Source: Sinomonas sp. P10A9
Lineage (GTDB): Bacteria; Actinomycetota; Actinomycetes; Actinomycetales; Micrococcaceae
Assembly: GCF_041022165.1 (NCBI RefSeq)
Contig: NZ_CP163302.1
Span: forward strand, 2,418,001-2,482,000
Length of the DNA stretch: 64,000 nucleotides
Reading direction: 5' to 3'
Shown: positions 960 to 48,593 of the stretch, one piece after another
How positions within the stretch are numbered: position 1 is the stretch's first letter
Layout: each line of letters begins with the position of its first letter
The notes under the pieces: generated by a model
What the model was told of the DNA's origin: nothing
Databases searched by the model: none
What the model saw: only the letters and a program-made list of their open reading frames with translations
Made by a program: the position numbers and the translations under genes

Positions 960-1298
960 TCAGATGGCTGAGGCGCCGCGCTCCCCGGTGCGGACGCGAA
1001 CCGCGTCCTGGACCTCGACGACCCAGATCTTGCCGTCGCCCTGGGAGCCGGTCGAGGCCGCAGTGATCATGGATTCGAGGATCTCCTCCGCCTGCTCGTC
1101 CGTGGAGAGGACCTCGATCCGGATCTTGGGGATCAGGTCCACGCTGTACTCGGCGCCGCGGTACACCTGGACGTAGCCGCGCTGGCGGCCATAACCGCTC
1201 GCACCACTCACGGTCAGGCCCTGGACGCCCTCGGACTCGAGCTGTTCACGGATGGCGTCGAGCTTCTCGGGCCGGACGATGGCGGTAATGAGCTTCAC
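960..1298 (-). CDS. glnB: PII nitrogen regulatory protein (copy 1)
   Basis: Trimeric PII signal protein of 112 residues. It senses ATP/ADP and 2-oxoglutarate and, when paired with amt, is expected to gate the neighbouring ammonium transporter. The N-terminus MKLITAIVRPEKL, the T-loop with RGAEYSVDL carrying Tyr51 (the residue modified by uridylylation or adenylylation) and the C-terminal RTGERGASAI are all intact. The start is GTG at 1298, overlapping the amt stop as GTGA, so translation is probably coupled. About 70-75% of residues match the second PII gene downstream of the other amt. Whether it should be called GlnB or GlnK cannot be decided from sequence; linkage to amt favours GlnK. Confidence 0.93.
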   Translation of the reverse strand: MKLITAIVRPEKLDAIREQLESEGVQGLTVSGASGYGRQRGYVQVYRGAEYSVDLIPKIRIEVLSTDEQAEEILESMITAASTGSQGDGKIWVVEVQDAVRVRTGERGASAI

Positions 1299-2728
1299 GG
1301 GCCAACAGTACCTGCCGGAACCATTCCGGCGAGCACCCCCTCTGAATGTGCTGCAGTGCGCGTCACACCAGGCTGGTGGAGCTTCTCGAGATGCTGTTCG
1401 AGGATCGTCTCGACGGTGTGGCGCACACCCAGCGGGTGGAAGCCGCCGCCCACACCGGCCGGAACTGCATGCGCGGCGTACGCCGTCTCGGCGTGGATCA
1501 CGAGGTCGACGCCGGCCTCCTCGACATCCCGGGCCACCCGGAAGCCCATGACCGCCTTGATCGCGAGGCCGAGTCCGAGGGCCACACCGAAGGAGTAGAC
1601 GAGGACGGCACCGGTTCCGAGGGCCTGGGTCCCCAAGAGGGCGAAGCCGCCGCCGTAGAACAGGCCCTGGCCGGGCACTGGAGCAGCCGGATCTGCCGCG
1701 AGGCCGATGAAGAGCGTGCCGACGATGCCGCCGACGAGGTGCACACCCACCACGTCGAGCGAGTCGTCGAAGCCGAGGCGGTACTTCAGACCCACGGCCA
1801 GTGCGCAGACCCCGCCGGCGACGATGCCGAGCACGATCGCCCACAGGGGGTCGATCGTGGCGCACGACGGCGTGATCGCGACGAGGCCCGCGACCGCACC
1901 GGAAGCGGCGCCGAACGAGGTGGCGTGCCCGTCGCGCACCCGCTCGACCACCAGCCACGAGAGCACGGCGGCGCATGGGGCAACGAGCGTGTTGATCCAG
2001 GCAAAGCCCGCCTCGCCGTTGGCGGCGAGGGCCGAACCGGCGTTGAAGCCGAACCAGCCGAACCACAGGAGGCCGGCGCCCAGCATGACGAGCGGGAGGT
2101 TGTGGGGGCGGTGCTCGGGGTCCTTGCCGAACCCGACGCGCTTGCCGAGCACGAGGGCAAGGGCGAGGCCCGCGGCGCCGGCGAGGACTTCGACGGCTGT
2201 GCCGCCCGCGAAGTCGATGAGGCCGAGGTGGTTGAGCCAGCCGCCGATGAACGTGCCCGAGGCGTCCTTCTTCGAGTCGAACACCCAGTGGGCCACGGGG
2301 AAGTAGACGAGCACGGCGAACAGACCCGCGAAGACCATCCACGAGCCGAACTTGGCGCGGTCGGCGATGGCGCCCGATACGAGGGCCACCGTGACGGTCG
2401 CGAAGACGCCCTGGAACCCGACGAACACGATCTCGGGAATCGTGCCGACGAGCGGCATCGAGCCGTCCGTCGCGAGGAGGTTGTGCAGGCCGAAGTCCTC
2501 GAACGGGTTGCCGAAGAGGCCTCCTCCAGCGTCCGTCCCGAACGCGATCGAGTACCCGAACAGCACCCACAGCACACCGACGAGGGCGAGGGCCCCGAAG
2601 CTCATCATCATCATGTTGAGCATCGACTTCACCCGGGTCATGCCCCCGTAGAAGATGGCCAGTCCCGGAGACATGAGGAGCACGAGGGCAGCCGAGACGA
2701 GGACCCAGGCTGTGTCGCCAGTGTTCAT
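1295..2728 (-). CDS. amt: Ammonium transporter, Amt family (copy 1, variant pore residue)
   Basis: Polytopic membrane protein of 477 residues that conducts ammonium, with about 11 membrane segments. Family marks are FYGGMTRVKSMLNMMMMSFG near the N-terminus, the phenylalanine-gate region GFQGVFA, WFGFNAGSAL and the second pore histidine at His330 in DVVGVHLVGG. The first pore histidine of the twin-His pair is replaced by glutamate: residue 180 reads AVEVLAG, where copy 2 has AVHINAG. Some fungal Mep transporters carry the same change and differ in transport properties. The gene is followed by glnB with a 4-nt overlap. The ATG at 2728 has an AAAGG ribosome site. A nitrogen-type promoter element lies about 90 bp upstream. 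Confidence 0.93.
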   Translation of the reverse strand: MNTGDTAWVLVSAALVLLMSPGLAIFYGGMTRVKSMLNMMMMSFGALALVGVLWVLFGYSIAFGTDAGGGLFGNPFEDFGLHNLLATDGSMPLVGTIPEIVFVGFQGVFATVTVALVSGAIADRAKFGSWMVFAGLFAVLVYFPVAHWVFDSKKDASGTFIGGWLNHLGLIDFAGGTAVEVLAGAAGLALALVLGKRVGFGKDPEHRPHNLPLVMLGAGLLWFGWFGFNAGSALAANGEAGFAWINTLVAPCAAVLSWLVVERVRDGHATSFGAASGAVAGLVAITPSCATIDPLWAIVLGIVAGGVCALAVGLKYRLGFDDSLDVVGVHLVGGIVGTLFIGLAADPAAPVPGQGLFYGGGFALLGTQALGTGAVLVYSFGVALGLGLAIKAVMGFRVARDVEEAGVDLVIHAETAYAAHAVPAGVGGGFHPLGVRHTVETILEQHLEKLHQPGVTRTAAHSEGVLAGMVPAGTVGP

Positions 2729-2816
2729 GTTCGCGTGGCCTTTCGACGGGACTGGAGCAGTTACTCAAGAATCCCGTCCCGGTGTTTCCTTCCCGCACCG
2801 CCCATGTTGCCCTCGC

Positions 2817-2852
2817 GTTACAGGATCGGGCCCATTGTTAAGTGCCGGTCAC
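2817..2852 (-). promoter_or_regulatory. GlnR-like nitrogen-control element upstream of amt copy 1
   Basis: On the minus strand there is GTGAC-N6-TTAAC followed after 15 bp by GTAAC. The same three pieces with exactly the same spacing occur upstream of amt copy 2. The half-sites resemble GlnR boxes of actinobacteria (GTnAC-N6-GnAAC). The match is by eye; which regulator binds is inference. Confidence 0.5.
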
Positions 2853-2925
2853 GCAAAGGTTAACGCCATGTTTCGCGGACCCCCTCGCTGACCCCTTCCG
2901 GTCCGTCTCCGCGCCCCCACCCAAG

Positions 2926-2958
2926 CGGACGACGGCGGGTGGAACCCGCCGTCGTCCG
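2926..2958. terminator. 15-bp hairpin downstream of glnB2; REP-like palindrome copy
   Basis: A perfect 15-bp stem with a GGA loop, built from the recurrent core ACGACGGCGGG/CCCGCCGTCGT. It lies just beyond the stop of the second PII gene and upstream of amt copy 1. The T-rich flank is on the plus-strand side, so as a minus-strand terminator it lacks a clear U-tract. Confidence 0.55.
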
Positions 2959-2986
2959 TCTTATTTCTCTTATCCCTGTGGGGCCG

Positions 2987-3325
2987 CTAGATCGCTGCCG
3001 CCCCGCGCTCACCGGTCCTGACCCGAATCGCCTCGTGGACGTCCACGGTCCAGACCTTGCCGTCCCCGGCCCGTCCGGTGTTGGACGTCGTGATGATCAC
3101 ATCGAGGATGTCATCGGTCTGATCGTCCGTGGCGAGGACTTCGATGCGGATCTTCGGGAGGAGGTCCACGCTGTACTCGGCGCCGCGGTAGACCTCGGTG
3201 TAGCCGCGCTGCTGGCCATAGCCGCTCGCCGCACTCACCGTGATTCCCTGGACCCCGTAGGCCTCGAGGGCTTCCCGGATCACGTCGAGCTTCTCGGGTC
3301 GGACGATCGCCGTGATGAGTTTCAT
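2987..3325 (-). CDS. glnK: PII nitrogen regulatory protein (copy 2)
   Basis: Second 112-residue PII protein, again starting MKLITAIVRPEKL and ending RTGERGAAAI, with Tyr51 in the T-loop RGAEYSVDL. Its role should be to bind and gate the adjacent Amt according to nitrogen status, and possibly to touch other nitrogen enzymes. Its ATG at 3325 overlaps the amt2 stop as ATGA, which implies coupled translation. It differs from copy 1 mainly in helix 1 and in the segment after the T-loop (DDQTDDILDVIITTSNTGRA), so the two trimers may not be interchangeable and could even mix. No defect is visible in it. Confidence 0.93.
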   Translation of the reverse strand: MKLITAIVRPEKLDVIREALEAYGVQGITVSAASGYGQQRGYTEVYRGAEYSVDLLPKIRIEVLATDDQTDDILDVIITTSNTGRAGDGKVWTVDVHEAIRVRTGERGAAAI

Positions 3326-4722
3326 GCGTTGATCTTCTTTCCGGTCTGCTTGCCTGATGGCCGAGCCAGGAGGTCGTCTGCGTTGAACGCGTCGACCTCG
3401 GCCTGGGCCTTGGAACCGAGCGGGTGGAAGCTCGCGCCCGTCGAGCCTGCCGTGCCGGCCGAGTAGGCCGTCTCGGCGTGGAGCGCGATGTCGACGCCGG
3501 CCTCCTCCGCCTCGGTCGAGACCCGGAAGCCCATCGTCTTGGAGATGATCCAGCCGATCACGAGGGAGAGGACGAACGAGTACACGAGCACCGAACCCGC
3601 GCCGATAGCCTGCTTGCCGAGGAGTTCGAAGCCGCCGCCGTAGAACAGGCCCTGGCCCTTGGACGGGGCACCGGGTCCGGCCGCGAGGCCGATGAAGAGC
3701 GTGCCGACGATGCCGCCGACGAGGTGGACGCCCACCACGTCAAGCGAGTCGTCGTAGCCGAACCGGTACTTGAGGCCCACGGCGAGGGCGCAGACCGCCC
3801 CGGCGAGGAGACCGAGCACGATGGCCCAGAGCGGCGAGATCGCGGCACACGCGGGGGTGACGGCCACGAGGCCGGCCACTGCGCCCGAGGCCGCACCGAG
3901 GGATGTCGCATGGCCGTCGCGCAGCTTCTCCACGATGAGCCATCCGAGCACCGCCGCGCAGGGGGCCACGAGCGTGTTGATCCAGGCAAACGCGGCCACG
4001 CCGTTGGCCCCGAGGGCCGAGCCGGCGTTGAAGCCGAACCAGCCGAACCACAGGAGGCCCGCGCCGAGCATCACGAACGGGAGGTTGTGCGGACGGTGGT
4101 TCGGGTCCTTGCCGAAGCCGTTGCGCTTGCCCAGGATGAGGGCGAGCGCCAGACCGGCCGCGCCGGCATTGATGTGGACGGCGGTGCCGCCGGCGAAGTC
4201 AATCACGCCGAGACCGTTGAGCCAGCCGCCGATGAAGTTGCCGTTGGCGTCCTTGTTGGCGTCGAACACCCAGTGGGCAACCGGGAAGTAGACGAGGATC
4301 GAGAAGAAGAACGCGAAGACCATCCAGGCGCCGAACTTGGCGCGGTCGGCGATCGCGCCGGAGATCAGCGCGACGGTGATGATCGCGAAGACGCCTTGGA
4401 AGCCCACGAAGGCCAGTTCGGGGATCGTCCCGGCCAGCGCCATGTCGTCGCCGGTCGAGAGCGTCCCGTGCAGGGCGAACTTGTCGAAGTTGCCCACGAG
4501 GCCGCCGAACCAGTCGGTGCCGAAGGACATCGAGTATCCGATGAGCACCCAGAGCACGCCCACGAGGGCGATTGCACCGAAGCTCATCATCATCATGTTC
4601 AGGACTGACTTGGCGCGCGTCATGCCGCCGTAGAAGAACGCGAGCCCGGGCGTCATCAGCAGCACAAGCGCCGCCGCGGCGAGCACCCAGGCGGTGTCTC
4701 CAGCGCTGAAGGTGGTGGTCAT
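3322..4722 (-). CDS. amt: Ammonium transporter, Amt family (copy 2, canonical twin-His)
   Basis: Ammonium channel of 466 residues with the canonical pore: His183 in DFAGGTAVHINAG and His333 in DVVGVHLVGG. The N-terminus is FYGGMTRAKSVLNMMMMSFG, as in copy 1, and the two copies are clearly paralogous. The chosen start is the ATG at 4722, preceded by GAAAGG, which gives the short N-terminus MTTTFSAGDTAW. The longer open frame upstream to 4842 has no family resemblance. Compared with copy 1 it has a longer C-terminal tail (SFHPLGSKAQAEVDAFNADD and beyond), the cytoplasmic part that contacts PII proteins. It overlaps glnK by 4 nt and has its own upstream nitrogen-type element. Confidence 0.94.
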   Translation of the reverse strand: MTTTFSAGDTAWVLAAAALVLLMTPGLAFFYGGMTRAKSVLNMMMMSFGAIALVGVLWVLIGYSMSFGTDWFGGLVGNFDKFALHGTLSTGDDMALAGTIPELAFVGFQGVFAIITVALISGAIADRAKFGAWMVFAFFFSILVYFPVAHWVFDANKDANGNFIGGWLNGLGVIDFAGGTAVHINAGAAGLALALILGKRNGFGKDPNHRPHNLPFVMLGAGLLWFGWFGFNAGSALGANGVAAFAWINTLVAPCAAVLGWLIVEKLRDGHATSLGAASGAVAGLVAVTPACAAISPLWAIVLGLLAGAVCALAVGLKYRFGYDDSLDVVGVHLVGGIVGTLFIGLAAGPGAPSKGQGLFYGGGFELLGKQAIGAGSVLVYSFVLSLVIGWIISKTMGFRVSTEAEEAGVDIALHAETAYSAGTAGSTGASFHPLGSKAQAEVDAFNADDLLARPSGKQTGKKINA

Positions 4723-39499: not shown

Positions 39500-39600
39500 C
39501 TGACCAGAGACCCCGCAGCACAACGCCAGAGACCCTACAGCGTTGCGGGGTCTCTGGCAGGAGGTTGCGGGGTCTCTGGCAGGACGTTGCGGGGTCTCTG
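39500..39600. repeat. 22-bp tandem/inverted repeat cluster after the gltX-HAD operon
   Basis: GTTGCGGGGTCTCTGG occurs three times on the plus strand with a 22-bp period (39542, 39564, 39586). Two inverted versions precede it (AGAGACCCCGCAG and CCAGAGACCCTACAG). The inverted and direct copies can form an 11-bp stem GCCAGAGACCC/GGGTCTCTGGC. It lies directly after the HAD hydrolase stop, so it may serve as a terminator or an mRNA 3'-end stem. Confidence 0.65.
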
Positions 39601-39604
39601 AGCG

Positions 39605-40447
39605 TCAGAGGAGGCCGAGGATCCCCGGGATCTCGCCCAGGCTCGCAACCTGTTCGGGCACCAGCAGTGCGGCCGCGGGGTCGAGGACCGTCGAGCGGCG
39701 ATTGAGCCAGATCCCGCGGATTCCCGCGCCGGCCGCCCCGACGACGTCGTGCGCGGGGTTGTCCCCGACGTACACCGTCTGCTCGGCCGCCGTGCCGAGC
39801 CGGCGCAGTCCCTCACGGAAGATGGCCGGATCCGGCTTCGCAACGCCCACCGCATCGATGCCCACCAGGACGCTGATGCGCTCGAGACCGGCGACATCGA
39901 GCTTGGCCCGCTGGTAGTCGTGCACGTTGTTGCTGACGGCGCCGTAGGCGATCCCCGCGGCCTCGAGGGCATCGAGGAACGGGTGCACGTCGTCAAACGC
40001 CCGGACGTATGAGGGCTGCGCCGTCTCGTACTCGCTGAGCCACTGAGCAGCCTGGGCATCGGAGGCGAAACCCGTCCCGAAGTGCGCGAGGCACCGCTCG
40101 GCCCGCAGCACCCGCTGCTCGGCGAATGTGATCTCGTGCGCCATGTAGCGCTCATAGATGTCGTCGGACCCGCGCGTGAAGATGCGGCAGAACGTCACCC
40201 ACTCCGCCTCGGCCAGGCCGGGCAGGAGCGGAGCGCTGACTTCACGAAGCGCCCGGTCCATGGCGCCCTCGAGATCCACGAGAGTCTCGTCGATGTCCAG
40301 GAGCACGCCCTCCACCTGCGCCGTTCCGACCACGCCGGGCACGCGAACGACGGCGGGTGCGCGGCCGCCGTCGTGCGTCGCCGGCGTCGCGGGTCCTGTG
40401 CTCTCGGCCAGCGCCTCAGCCACGGTCGCAGTCACCGTGTCAGCCAC
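39605..40447 (-). CDS. HAD-family hydrolase
   Basis: Haloacid-dehalogenase-like phosphatase of 280 residues. Motif I is [10 protein letters not shown] (about 49-58), motif II GAVSNN, motif III and the acidic pair AKPDPAIF and VGDNPAHDV. The helical cap between motifs I and II is of the YjjG or phosphoglycolate-phosphatase type; the substrate is unknown. The GTG at 40447 overlaps the gltX stop by 8 nt (GTGGCTGA). The first about 45 residues are unlike HAD proteins and include [11 protein letters not shown], encoded by a REP-like palindrome, so the real start may be further inside. Confidence 0.82.
40344..40377. repeat. REP-like inverted repeat inside the HAD gene
   Basis: ACGACGGCGG at 40347-40356 pairs with CCGCCGTCGT at 40365-40374; two more pairs follow after a mismatch. 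It lies in the N-terminal extension of the HAD reading frame, between gltX and the conserved part of the protein. Confidence 0.55.
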
Positions 40448-44368: not shown

Positions 44369-45421
44369 CTAGAGGCGCGCCGCGACGGCGTCCCCGACGG
44401 CAGACGTCGTGCGCGCCTCGCCCGGGGTGCGGGACTCGACATCGGCCCGCACGGCAGCCTGGATGCGCGCAGCTGCCTCGGGCTGGCCGATGTGGTCAAG
44501 CAGGAGCGCGGCCGAGAGGATCGCGGCGGTCGGGTCGGCCTTCTGCTGGCCGGCGATGTCGGGGGCCGATCCGTGGACGGGCTCGAACATGCTCGGCGCG
44601 GTGCGGTCGATGTTGATGTTGCCGCTTGCGGCGAGGCCGATGCCGCCCGTTACTGCACCCGCGAGGTCCGTGAGGATGTCGCCGAACAGGTTGTCGGTGA
44701 CGATGACGTCGAACCTGGAGGGGTCGGTGACGAGGAAGATCGTGGCCGCGTCGACGTGCAGGTAGTCGTGCTCGACGCCCGGGAACTCGGCGGCGACGGC
44801 CTCGACGGTGCGCTTCCACAGGTGGCCCGCGTACACGAGGACGTTGTGCTTGTGGACGAGCGTGACCTTGTTGCGCCGCTGGGTGGCGCGGCGGAAGGCG
44901 TCGCGGACCACGCGCTCGACCCCGAAGGCCGTGTTGACGGAGACCTCCGTGGCAATCTCCTGCGGCGTGCCGACCCGCAGGGCGCCGCCGTTGCCCGTGT
45001 AGGGGCCCTCGGTGCCCTCGCGCACCACAACGAAATCGACCTGCCCCGGGTCCGCGAGCGGGCTGGGAACTCCCGCGTAGAGCCGGGACGGTCGCAGGTT
45101 GACGCAGTGGTCGAGGCTGAAGCGGAGCTTGAGGAGGATCTCGCGTTCGAGGATGCCCGAGGGGATGCGTGTGTCACCGGGGGCGGCACCGACGGCGCCG
45201 AAGAGGATGGCATCGCGGCCGCGGATGTCCGCAAGGGTCTCCTCGGAGAGCGTCTCCCCCGTCGCGAGCCAGTGCTCCGCGCCGAGGCTGTAACGCGTCT
45301 CCTTGACTTCGAGGCCCGATCCCTCGAGCGCCTTGTGGAGGACCTTGAGGGCCTCTGCCGTCACTTCGGGGCCGATGCCGTCTCCGGGAATCACTGCAAG
45401 ATCGAGCTGCGTCTGGGTCAT
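44369..45421 (-). CDS. leuB: 3-isopropylmalate dehydrogenase
   Basis: NAD-dependent oxidative decarboxylase of 350 residues in leucine synthesis. It has [13 protein letters not shown] at the N-terminus, [20 protein letters not shown] for substrate binding, and [17 protein letters not shown] with the metal-binding Asp residues. The start at ATG 45421 ([13 protein letters not shown]) fits homologues. No ribosome site precedes it, and a possible -10 (TAGTCT) is 7 nt away. The upstream 21-bp repeat array begins about 65 bp from the start. Confidence 0.95.
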
Positions 45422-45428
45422 GATCGAA

Positions 45429-45485: not shown

Positions 45486-45607
45486 GCGCCGAAGTCACCC
45501 CCGGCGGGCGCGACGTCACCCCCTGTGGACGCGACGTCACCCCCCTGTGGGCGCGAAGTCACCCCCTGTGGGCGCGAAGTCACCCCCTGTGGGCGCGAAG
45601 TCACCCT
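45486..45607 (-). repeat. 21-bp tandem repeat array, left flank of DUF559 gene
   Basis: Six units of about 21 bp. On the minus strand the unit reads CACAGGGGGTGACTTCGCGC plus one base, with variants GACGTC in place of GAAGTC on the plus strand. The three units nearest the gene are identical or nearly so; the outer ones are diverged. It lies between the leuB start and the DUF559 gene. Its core GGTGACTTCG matches the array on the other side of that gene, in reverse orientation. Confidence 0.8.
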
Positions 45608-45694
45608 GGTGCTGCAGGCGCGCGACCCTTTGAGTTATCCACATACAAGGTCGGCGACGCTGCGGATGACGAGTCGGGACGGGAGACTCCCACC

Positions 45695-46666
45695 ATGGAC
45701 CTCGACCTCGACCTCACTCCCCACGCCCGGGACCGGATTGGTGATCTGGCCGCCTCAGCGGCTTCCCCCGTCCCCATGCTCACGAGAAGTCAGCTTCGCT
45801 CCGCCGGTCTCGACGACCAAACCATCCGGAGCCTCACCGACTCTGGCGACCTGTCCCGACAGGGACGCGGTGTCTATGCGCCGATGGGGGTTGGCACTCC
45901 TGATCCCATGATCATCAGAATCTGCGCGCACCATGCCGCCTCGACCGGTGCTTCGCACGTATACACCCACACATCGGCGGCGCTGATCTGGGGCCTCCCG
46001 GTGTGGCGTGCGCGGCCGCTCGTACATGTCGCGCATGCTGGCCGTCGGGGAAACTCCGGTCCCGCGTGCGACATCGTGCGGCACAACCAACGAATCCCTG
46101 ACTCACAGGTCACGACCAGGGGCGGGCTCAGGGTGACCTCGTTGGAGCGGACCATCATCGACTGCGCGCGGTTGCTGCCCTTCGAGCTGGCCGTGATCAT
46201 CGCCGACTCCGGGCTCGCAAACGGCGCAGATCGTGAGACCATCCGTCGTCTCGTCGTCGAAGGCAGGGGCACGCGTGGAATACGGCGAGTCCGTGAGGCG
46301 CTGGCCGCCGCCAACGGGCTCTCGGAATCTCCGGCCGAGACACGCTTCCGTCTGCTTCTGGAGGAATGGAACCTTCCCGAACCAGAGCTCCAGCTCTGGA
46401 TCGCGACTGCGGGTGGTCGTGAACGCGTCGACTTCGCCTGGTCAGCGAGGCGGCTCGTCATCGAGGTTCATGGGTACGCGAAGTACTTCGACTACGGACC
46501 GCCGGACACGAAGGTTGTAGCGCAGCGTGAGCGCGAGGCACGGCTGGTCGCTGCTGGATGGCGCGTTCTCAACGTGTACTGGCCCGAGCTCGACGACGTC
46601 GAGGCTCTCCGCACCAAAGTGCGTGCCTTCCTCACGACGCCGCATGCCCTGTTCGACGTCGCGTGA
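45695..46666 (+). CDS. DUF559 (Vsr-like nuclease fold) protein with AbiEi-like N-terminus
   Basis: Protein of 323 residues. The N-terminal about 90 residues form a winged-helix resembling AbiEi-type antitoxins (LTRSQLRSAGLDDQTIRSLT, then SRQGRGVYAPMG), followed by a middle region with YTHTSAALIWGLP. The C-terminal DUF559 domain (about 210-320) has a PD-(D/E)xK-like set: Glu in SPAETRFRLLLEEW, Asp in RERVDFAW, the pair in VIEVHGYAKY and the closing REARLVAAGWRVLNVYW. The Lys of the classic motif is replaced by His. ATG 45695 has GGGAGA upstream. It has no partner gene. It is enclosed by inverted arrays of one 21-bp repeat. The function is unknown. Confidence 0.8.
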   Translation: MDLDLDLTPHARDRIGDLAASAASPVPMLTRSQLRSAGLDDQTIRSLTDSGDLSRQGRGVYAPMGVGTPDPMIIRICAHHAASTGASHVYTHTSAALIWGLPVWRARPLVHVAHAGRRGNSGPACDIVRHNQRIPDSQVTTRGGLRVTSLERTIIDCARLLPFELAVIIADSGLANGADRETIRRLVVEGRGTRGIRRVREALAAANGLSESPAETRFRLLLEEWNLPEPELQLWIATAGGRERVDFAWSARRLVIEVHGYAKYFDYGPPDTKVVAQREREARLVAAGWRVLNVYWPELDDVEALRTKVRAFLTTPHALFDVA

Positions 46667-46756
46667 GAGACACTGCCCAGACGCGTTGCGGACGGCGATG
46701 TTCAGTCGCCGCCGTGCCGCCGGATGACCGCGGCCACCGGGCGACCTCAGCGCCAG

Positions 46757-47030
46757 AGGTGACTTCGGCACCCCACCCGGTGACCTCGACACCACACCCC
46801 GTGACCTCGACACCCCACCCGGTGACCTCGACACCACACCCCGTGACCTCGACACCACACCCGGTGACCTCGACACCACACCCCGTGACTTCGGCACCTC
46901 ACCCGGTGACCTCAACACCCACCCGGTGACCTCGACACCACACCCGGTGACCTCGGCACCACACCCGGTGACCTCGGCACCACACCCGGTGACCTCGGCA
47001 CCACACGGGGTGACCTCGGCGGGCGGGAGG
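46757..47030 (+). repeat. 21-bp tandem repeat array, right flank of DUF559 gene
   Basis: About thirteen units of 20-21 bp with core CCGGTGACCTCGACACCACA (variants GGCAC for GACAC, CCCGTGAC for CCGGTGAC). It fills most of the 367-bp gap between the DUF559 stop and the convergent metG stop; the remaining 46667-46756 shows no other feature. The period and core (CACA...GGTGAC-TCG) equal those of the left array, in opposite orientation. Confidence 0.85.
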
Positions 47031-47033
47031 CGG

Positions 47034-48593
47034 TCAGGCCTCTGCGGGCTCCTCGTAGCGCGGGAAGACCGGCACGGGGGCGGGGAGCTGAGTGCCAGGG
47101 GCGATGGGGGTCGCGATGGCGGCGAACTGGCGGGATTCGCCCTCAGGCTGGCCGAGCACGTCCAACAGCTTCGCTGCGGATGCGGGCACCACCGGCTGCA
47201 CGAGGAGCCCCACCGTGCGGACCACATCGAGCGTCACGTACAGCACGGTAGCCATGCGGGCGGGATCCGTCTTGCGCAGAACCCACGGGGCCTGGTCAGC
47301 GAAGTAGGCGTTGGTGTCGCCGAGCACGGTCCAAATCGCCTCGAGTGCGCGCGAGAACTCCTGCTTGTCGAACGATGCCCGCACGGCCGCCAGCAGACCA
47401 GCCGTGGCATCGAGGATCGCCCGGTCCGCGTCGCTGAACTGCCCCGGCGAGGGCACGACTCCGTCCAGGTTCTTGGCCACCATCGAGAGCGACCGCTGGG
47501 CGAGGTTCCCGAGGTTGTTGGCGAGGTCCGCGTTCATGCGGCCCACGATCGCCTCGTGGCTGTAGCTGCCGTCGGCACCGTAAGGCACTTCGCGCAGGAA
47601 GAAGTAGCGGACGGAATCGAGCCCGTACTGGGCGATCATGTCCGCTGGCGCCACGACGTTGCCCAATGACTTGGACATCTTGACGCCGTTGTTCTGCAGG
47701 AACCCGTGGATCATCACCCGTTGGGGCAGCTCGAGCCCCGCGCTCATGAGGAACGCGGGCCAGTAGATCGCGTGGAAGCGCGAGATGTCCTTGCCGATGA
47801 TGTGCACGTCCGCGGGCCAGTACTTCCGGAAGGGCTCGGAGTCCGTGTCGGGGTAGCCCACGCCGGTGAGGTAGTTGGTCAGCGCGTCGACCCAGACGTA
47901 CATGACGTGGCCGGGGGCGTCCGGCACGGGAACGCCCCAGTCGAACGACGTGCGCGAGATCGAGAGGTCCTCGAGCCCGTGCTTGACGAAGGAGATGACC
48001 TCGTTGAACCGGTACTGCGGTGCGCCGAACTCGGGGTGGGACTCGTAGTACGCCAGAAGCCTGTCCTGATAGGCCGAGAGGCGGAAGAAGTAGCTCTCCT
48101 CAGCGGTCCAGGTGAGCTCGGTGTCGGTCTCCTTCGAGTACCGCACGCCGTCGCGCACCACGGTCTCGTCCTCGGTGTAGTACGCCTCATCGCGGACCGA
48201 GTACCAGCCCTCGTACTTGTCGAGGTAGATGTCCCCCGCGCCCTCCATGCGCTTCCAGAGATCGCTGGCCGCGGCGTAATGGTCCGAATCGGTCGTTCGG
48301 ATGAGGCGGTCGTAGCTCGTGCCGAGGAGTTCGTGCACGTCCCGGTACACCGCAGCCTGACGGTCGACGAACTCCTTTGCCGTGAGCCCCTCCTTCTCGG
48401 CGGTCTGGGCGATCTTGAGCCCATGCTCGTCGGTTCCGGTGAGGAAGAAGACGTCGAATCCGTCGAGTCGCTTGAAACGCGCCATCGCATCCGCGGAGAT
48501 GTACTCGTAGGCATGGCCGATGTGGGGCGCACCGTTCGGGTACGTAATGGCAGTGGTGAGGTAGAAGGGAACCTTCTCAGATGCGGACGTCAC
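47034..48593 (-). CDS. metG: Methionyl-tRNA synthetase
   Basis: Class I synthetase of 519 residues. HIGH motif in [12 protein letters not shown] (about 20-31) and KMSKS in [13 protein letters not shown]. The zinc-knuckle region lacks CxxC pairs, so it is the short, zinc-free type without the C-terminal tRNA-binding domain. ATG or GTG usage at 48593 is consistent with [20 protein letters not shown]. The stop lies next to the long 21-bp repeat array. Confidence 0.95.

What the first reader, a model, noticed from the sequence alone, without database searches (positions are those of the whole stretch)
45486..47030. Two inverted arrays of one 21-bp repeat family enclose a DUF559 gene
Left array: six units (GGTGACTTCG core on the minus strand). 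Right array: about thirteen units (GGTGACCTCG core on the plus strand). They have the same 21-bp period and the aligned skeleton CACA...GGTGAC-TCG, but opposite orientation. They directly flank a gene with a PD-(D/E)xK-like DUF559 domain and an AbiEi-like HTH, inserted among branched-chain amino acid genes. A nuclease-like protein bracketed by its own repeat family suggests a selfish or recognition system, such as a repeat-targeting endonuclease or an element that spreads with the repeat.
Basis: partly seen in the sequence, partly recalled or inferred. Interest (0 to 1): 0.72.

Follow-up and report, generated by a model that had tools for sequence, protein, structure and literature searches.

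The report
Repeat arrays with their own nuclease
In soil bacteria of the genus Sinomonas, dozens of short DNA repeat arrays scattered through the genome appear to depend on one nuclease-like gene that sits between two of them, and the repeats change their sequence from species to species together with that gene, which points to an unrecognised kind of genome-colonising repeat system.

Summary
The two inverted 21-bp arrays are real (6 units at 45490-45606, minus; 13 at 46758-47018, plus), but they belong to a genome-wide family: 37 arrays in the regions fetched. The enclosed gene (45695-46666) encodes an AbiEi-like DNA-binding module fused to an EDxHD/Vsr homing-endonuclease-like domain.

In 15 Sinomonas genomes the gene goes with array load: 8 of 8 carriers are array-rich and bracket the gene with arrays at one syntenic site; 7 of 7 non-carriers have few or none (four independent contrasts, too few for significance by sign test). 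The start of the repeat core is a species dialect (GGTG, CCCG or CCCC before AYYTCG). Orthologous arrays carry different dialects, and in the one informative conflict the dialect follows the gene tree, not the species tree.

The link is general: of 30 homologues from 22 other genera, 21 share a strong repeat between both flanks, against 4 of 422 control genes; many elements are REPIN-like palindromes.

Best reading: a REPIN/RAYT-like duo whose partner is an unrelated nuclease. Binding, cutting and copying are inferred. No report of it was found in the open-licence library searched.

The parts
45490..45606 (-). Left array: 6 units of 21 bp, core GGTGAC[T/G]TCG read on the minus strand, in the spacer between leuB and the partner gene
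45695..46666 (+). Partner gene, 323 aa: AbiEi-like module (residues 10-207) plus EDxHD/Vsr-like nuclease domain (212-318)
46758..47018 (+). Right array: 13 units of 21 bp, core GGTGACCTCG, pointing at the stop codon of metG
44369..45424 (-). leuB, left neighbour (conserved synteny)
   Evidence: Iso_dh
47034..48593 (-). metG, right neighbour (conserved synteny)
39505..39605 (.). Inverted 22-bp repeats (CGTTGCGGGGTCTCTGGC) of the family that stands beside another AbiEi/DUF559 paralogue of this genome (G000:C1:2056160); a dispersed copy of a sister system

Best explanation
The arrays are dispersed REPIN-like genomic repeats and the enclosed gene is their dedicated partner. The AbiEi-type winged helix reads the variable half of the 10-bp core (GGTG, CCCG or CCCC before A-Y-Y-TCG). 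The EDxHD/Vsr-like domain cuts or nicks at or near the core, and host repair or replication adds and copies units, so arrays expand, are renewed and spread, mostly to gene ends, while the gene stays single-copy. When the protein's specificity changes or the gene is replaced, arrays are rewritten to the new dialect; when the gene is lost, arrays decay. Shown: the genome-wide family, joint presence of gene and arrays, bracketing, dialects, different dialects at orthologous sites, a gene tree that follows dialect against the species tree (one case), the fold, and the same bracketing by other repeats in other genera. Inferred: binding of the core by this protein, cleavage, copying, and whether the pair is selfish or domesticated.
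For: Carriers against non-carriers in 15 genomes: ACNTCG x3 hits 16-128 against 0-7, G006 with its own dialect 95 hits. Arrays on both sides of the gene in 8 of 8 carriers; relic units at empty sites of G037 and G175. Four independent pairs, array richness follows in 4 of 4. Dialects; orthologous arrays with different dialects at 9 sites among the loci fetched. Species tree rejects G104+G006 (p-AU 0.0003); gene tree joins them (100/99.7) and rejects the species grouping (p-AU 0.0015). Winged-helix part is the fastest-changing. Fold of AbiEi plus EDxHD homing endonuclease; E215, D246, E257 invariant in 21 relatives. 21 of 30 homologues in other genera share a strong flank repeat against 4 of 422 control genes. 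Dispersed copies of the flank elements of two of six homologues in a 320-kb sample of genome G024.
Against: No experiment; binding and cutting are unproven. The sign test with four contrasts gives p 0.125 at best. The conflict between gene tree and species tree is one case, and G104 has CCCG as well as CCCC units. Two carriers, G006 and G207, have no array at the second site read. Minority units of other dialects exist in G121 and G006. Non-carriers G175, G084 and G037 keep a few short arrays, read here as relics. 5 of 30 homologues and 4 of 9 relatives in this genome (scores 24-35) show no strong shared flank repeat.
Confidence: 0.6

Rival explanations
1. Regulatory or architectural system: the protein has become a DNA-binding factor that does not cut; arrays are its binding platforms at gene ends (roadblock, insulator or transcript-end element) and are kept by selection for binding.
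For: Cores point at the stop codon of the next gene in 19 of 28 (G000) and 17 of 23 (G006) arrays judged intergenic, often within 36 bp; a 21-bp period is two helical turns (inference); the dialect-gene link would follow as well.
Against: 9 of 28 and 6 of 23 face a gene start, and 6 of 34 and 7 of 30 arrays lie inside predicted genes. A separate terminator-like hairpin stands beside the arrays at the second site. Arrays are missing in many relatives at the same gene ends. E215, D246, E257 are kept in 21 of 21 relatives. Flanking of the gene itself is not explained.
Confidence: 0.2
2. Toxin-antitoxin or defence gene with operator repeats: an AbiEi-type repressor that binds repeats at its own promoter; the other arrays are decoys or by-products.
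For: AbiEi fold and Pfam/PADLOC hits; the left array lies upstream of the gene.
Against: No AbiEii-like toxin gene beside it: neighbours are leuB, ilvE and metG. Arrays also stand downstream of the gene and at dozens of unrelated places. An operator does not predict genome-wide dialect change.
Confidence: 0.1
3. Passive satellite: arrays grow and homogenise by slippage and unequal recombination alone; the gene merely lies between two of them and the link with array load is phylogenetic coincidence.
For: Unit number varies between near-identical genomes (6 and 13 here, 4 and 7 in ASV486); spacers are alike within an array; only four independent contrasts exist.
Against: The core is kept across arrays whose spacers differ, differs as a set between species at orthologous sites, and follows the gene tree. 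Unrelated repeats bracket homologues in other genera far above control.
Confidence: 0.07

Closest known systems
REP/REPIN sequences with RAYT transposases (REPtrons)
   Same: Dispersed short extragenic repeats; inverted copies bracket a single-copy partner gene; genomes with the gene hold more repeats; several families can coexist (passages of PMC8049555 and PMC3733652)
   Different: Partner is an AbiEi plus EDxHD nuclease, not an HUH tyrosine transposase; no GTAG tag; the arms are tandem 21-bp arrays here; species dialects follow the partner gene
EDxHD homing endonuclease I-Bth0305I and Vsr mismatch endonuclease
   Different: N-terminal part is AbiEi-like; the gene is not in an intron or intein and shows no spread of its own; no mismatch or Dcm link seen
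AbiEi antitoxins of AbiE type IV toxin-antitoxin systems
   Same: Residues 10-207 share the fold of 6y8q and Rv2827c
   Different: No toxin gene beside it; fused to a nuclease domain
DNA uptake sequence dialects of Neisseriaceae (recalled, from no call)
   Same: Short genome-wide word with species dialects
   Different: Here the word comes in tandem arrays tied to one nuclease-like gene; single copies are not clearly over-represented

Membership tests
REPIN/RAYT (REPtron) | Partner is an HUH/Y1 tyrosine transposase of the IS200/IS605 group | tested here: not met
   Sequence profile and model match AbiEi and EDxHD/Vsr structures over residues 10-318; no Pfam transposase hit at E<=1 in 21 relatives
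REPIN/RAYT (REPtron) | Partner gene flanked by the repeats | tested here: met
   8 of 8 Sinomonas carriers; 25 of 30 homologues of other genera above the 99th percentile of mispaired flanks
REPIN/RAYT (REPtron) | Repeats dispersed, mainly extragenic, often inverted pairs | tested here: met
   37 arrays in the fetched regions; 10 of 10 loci with two opposed arrays have minus left, plus right; 28 of 34 intergenic by ad hoc gene calls
REPIN/RAYT (REPtron) | Genomes with the partner gene hold more repeats | tested here: met
   15 of 15 genomes agree, four independent contrasts
REPIN/RAYT (REPtron) | GTAG tag at one end of each repeat | tested here: not met
   Arrays read in full show no GTAG; outer core is followed by GCG in 27 of 36
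REPIN/RAYT (REPtron) | Partner copies or moves the repeats | not testable with these tools
   needs an experiment
EDxHD homing endonuclease | Catalytic-domain fold and acidic residues | tested here: met
EDxHD homing endonuclease | Gene invades alleles that lack it | tested here: inconclusive
   One site in 8 carriers, apparent transfer between G006-like and G104 lineages, no invasion seen
EDxHD homing endonuclease | Site-specific DNA cleavage | not testable with these tools
   needs purified protein
AbiE toxin-antitoxin system | AbiEii nucleotidyltransferase toxin beside AbiEi | tested here: not met
   Neighbours are leuB, ilvE, metG in the window and leuB or metG in the other carriers
DNA uptake sequences | Single copies strongly over-represented | tested here: inconclusive
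   11 GGTGACYTCG per 400 kb of G000 against permuted words mean 3.2 (rank 0.037), but 7 per 320 kb in a genus without these arrays

The most novel reading that the evidence does not exclude
AbiEi-EDxHD ('DUF559') proteins, annotated today as antitoxins or Vsr-like repair enzymes, are a family-wide class of repeat-partner nucleases unrelated to RAYTs. Each paralogue has its own REPIN-like or array family, reads it through a fast-evolving winged helix, and keeps rewriting the genome's copies to its current dialect, so that several such systems run side by side in one chromosome.
Probability: 0.55. Interest if true: 0.92.

Novelty: new variant of a known kind. Interest (0 to 1): 0.85.

Why it matters
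REPIN populations with their RAYT partner are the standard bacterial example of a repeat population tied to one single-copy gene. An unrelated nuclease in the same role would mean that this way of life arose more than once, would explain many short repeats of actinobacterial genomes, and would give a function to a common 'AbiEi/DUF559' annotation. The natural dialects make protein-DNA co-evolution directly testable: exchange the gene and see which arrays are bound, nicked or rewritten.

Tried and rejected
My first view was that the arrays had nothing to do with the gene: 30-odd arrays lie elsewhere, most of the 9 relatives of the gene in this genome are not beside them, and L033 and L034 seemed to have the gene without arrays. 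Reading those two by eye showed arrays with another core, which turned the case round.

Rejected or set low: coding heptapeptide repeats (28 of 34 arrays judged intergenic); terminator as the main role (a separate terminator-like hairpin beside the arrays); uptake signal (inconclusive); AbiE pair.

Dropped: a count that first suggested many dispersed copies of the L066 element. Most of those hits fall on a hairpin that recurs at gene ends (for example window 2930-2959), not on the element; one hit to the element remains (L285). The control gene with flank score 304 (window 1295-2728) lies between two similar copies of neighbouring genes, to judge from the sequence. A search for older CCCG units at the inner end of arrays gave 6 of 36 inner against 3 of 36 outer: too weak.

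Limits of counts: GANNTCG undercounts G006 (8 hits, within the range of non-carriers, 5-13) because its core has no GA, and counts some arrays on both strands; ANYTCG was run on G006 and G104 only (95 and 33 hits; by eye about 7 and 5 look like coding chance hits). Of the 16 ACNTCG hits of G104 at least 4 look like chance, as does at least 1 of 7 in G175. Places in G000 were listed for 100 of 113 hits, so sites beyond about 3.78 Mb were not looked at. One search left out L056 (one array), hence 36 there against 37. Control genes were not matched for the length of their spacers. The mispaired null has one outlier at 308 and the first run wrongly placed the flanks of loci near contig ends; one search corrects it. 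In G197 the leuB side of the site was not in the stretch fetched. RNA-family and promoter scans were not run.

Literature: (listings, titles and abstract starts); passages of PMC8049555, PMC3733652, PMC12306157, PMC3943268. No paper was read whole. No listed title ties DUF559 or AbiEi proteins to genomic repeats; the library holds open-licence papers only.

Full report
THE OBSERVATION. The window is G000:C1:2418001-2482000 of a 4.29-Mb genome. The nearest named relative, 99% identical in the gene, is Sinomonas sp. ASV486, where the two arrays have 4 and 7 units. In the whole genome the two-unit pattern occurs 113 times, the reversed control 0 times. In 27 regions fetched around listed hits I count 37 arrays (one region, L053, has none by that scan). 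At 10 of 10 loci with two opposed arrays the minus one is on the left and the plus one on the right.

GENE AND ARRAYS GO TOGETHER. In 15 Sinomonas genomes the orthologue (E<=1e-60) is in 8. Three-unit ACNTCG hits in carriers: G000 89, G226 73, G135 128, G121 86, G186 60, G207 24, G006 21, G104 16. In non-carriers: G175 7, G037 7, G084 5, G197 3, G216 3, G162 1, G150 0. With GANNTCG six carriers have 92-173 hits and G104 23, but G006 has 8, inside the non-carrier range of 5-13, because its core lacks GA; with ANYTCG it has 95 (run on G006 and G104 only). In the other genera of the family the GTGACNTCG pair pattern has one hit in 7 of 280 genomes and none in the rest. In 8 of 8 carriers arrays stand on both sides of the gene, next to leuB; in G135 and G121 other genes lie between the right array and metG. 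Without the gene, leuB follows metG directly in G037, G162 and G216; G037 and G175 keep relic units; G084, G175 and G150 have other genes there; in G197 the site was not resolved. On a metG+serA tree there are four independent pairs that differ in the gene, and array richness follows in four of four; with four pairs the sign test cannot fall below p 0.125.

DIALECTS. Minority units exist: CCCG and GGCG in G121, CCCG in G006, and three places with GGTG-type units in G006. Among the loci fetched, arrays at seven orthologous sites are GGTG in G000 and CCCC (one mixed with CCCG) in G006, and one further site each differs in G104 and G186. A second site about 50 kb from metG was read in 15 genomes: GGTG in G000, G226, G135; GGCG/GGTG in G121; two CCCC units in G104; an inverted CCCG pair that makes a REPIN-like palindrome in G186; two-unit relics in the non-carriers G084 and G175; decayed traces in G037; none in the non-carriers G162, G150, G197, G216, and none in two carriers, G006 and G207.

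THE GENE TREE FOLLOWS THE DIALECT. The species tree rejects G104+G006 as a clade (p-AU 0.0003). The partner-gene tree joins them with 100/99.7 support and rejects the species grouping (p-AU 0.0015). The carriers nearest to G104 in the species tree (G135, G121, G000, G226) have GGTG, yet G104 has no GTGAC array pair in its whole genome. This is one informative case, though a genome-wide one. The winged-helix end changes fastest: 37-57% identity between species over residues 1-75 (75% for G006/G104) against 68-85% in the nuclease part.

PLACE AND SHAPE. By ad hoc gene calls, 28 of 34 arrays in G000 and 23 of 30 in G006 are intergenic; of these the core points at the stop codon of the next gene in 19 of 28 and 17 of 23, 13 of 19 within 20 bp and 13 of 17 within 36 bp; the others face a gene start. 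The last core before the gene is followed by GCG in 27 of 36 arrays against 56 of 166 other cores (p 9e-6), so the outer end seems to carry a constant tag.

GENERALITY. This genome has eight more relatives of the gene, several with their own repeats on both sides by eye. Flank-sharing scores of the nine are 103, 72, 51, 49 (this gene), 47, 35, 26, 25, 24. The 22-bp repeat beside the paralogue at 2056160 recurs as an inverted pair in this window at 39505-39605. One genome of each of 31 other genera was searched: 22 have homologues at E<=1e-8, 69 places. Of the 30 loci fetched, 25 share a repeat between the two 700-bp flanks above 31, the 99th percentile of 580 mispaired flanks (two flanks were shorter). 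Against 422 random genes of two genomes: above 31, 25 of 30 against 26 of 422; above 40, 21 of 30 against 4 of 422, p 2e-25. Many elements are palindromes of some 50-70 bp. In G024, five of six homologues score above 40; for two of the six, both flanks hit the same dispersed copies in a 320-kb sample: six places for one (three hit from both flanks; three of the six lie in the stretch next to the gene), one for the other. L241 of genus g25 (46% identity over the matched part) is flanked by GAAGTCACCCC...GGGGTGACTTC, this window's core as a palindrome.

HOW IT MOST LIKELY WORKS. Shown: a repeat family, a bracketed partner gene, joint presence, dialects that follow the gene, and a nuclease fold. 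Inferred: the winged helix reads the dialect half of the core, the nuclease nicks there, and repair or replication copies units, so that arrays are renewed and converted in carriers and decay in non-carriers. REPIN/RAYT pairs are described in similar terms (PMC8049555, PMC3733652, passages), but this protein is no RAYT and the repeats have no GTAG tag: it works like a REPtron and is not one. A protein that binds but does not cut explains the dialects too and is the main rival.

NOVELTY. In the library searched no listed paper ties DUF559 or AbiEi proteins to genomic repeats (listings and abstract starts). I file it as a new variant of the repeat-plus-partner kind; the bolder reading, a family-wide class unrelated to RAYTs, is in the section on the most novel reading.

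Noticed in passing
window 39505-39605: A second repeat family: inverted 22-bp repeats (GCGTTGCGGGGTCTCTGGCAGGA type), the same family as beside the AbiEi/DUF559 paralogue at G000:C1:2056160.
   Followed up: partly
L066 (G000:C1:248334 paralogue), about 650 bp on each side: A 60-odd-bp hairpin element (TTTCGGTCATTACCCCGGTC...GGGGGCGATGACCGAAA) stands on both sides of this paralogue; one further copy in L285.
   Followed up: partly
L063 (G000:C1:3161843 paralogue): Its flanking repeats of about 70 bp are in direct, not inverted, order, unlike most other members.
   Followed up: no
G000:C1 1,328,150-2,415,102: No listed array hit in about 1.1 Mb of the chromosome (one weak 3-unit array with one exact core in the sample L276). 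Cause unknown; perhaps the terminus half.
   Followed up: no
window 45695-46666: The partner gene has third-position GC of 75% and a weak score in a codon model trained on this genome (21.6 over 323 codons), as if foreign or fast-evolving.
   Followed up: no
G006:C15:20429, C16:10751, C7:105896: Three places with GGTG-type units (GTGACCTCGCAACGNTGGGAG) in a genome whose other arrays are CCCC: relics of another dialect or a separate family.
   Followed up: no
window about 960-3350: Two similar small genes on either side of an ammonium-transporter-like gene (a local duplication, by eye), which gave the highest control score.
   Followed up: no
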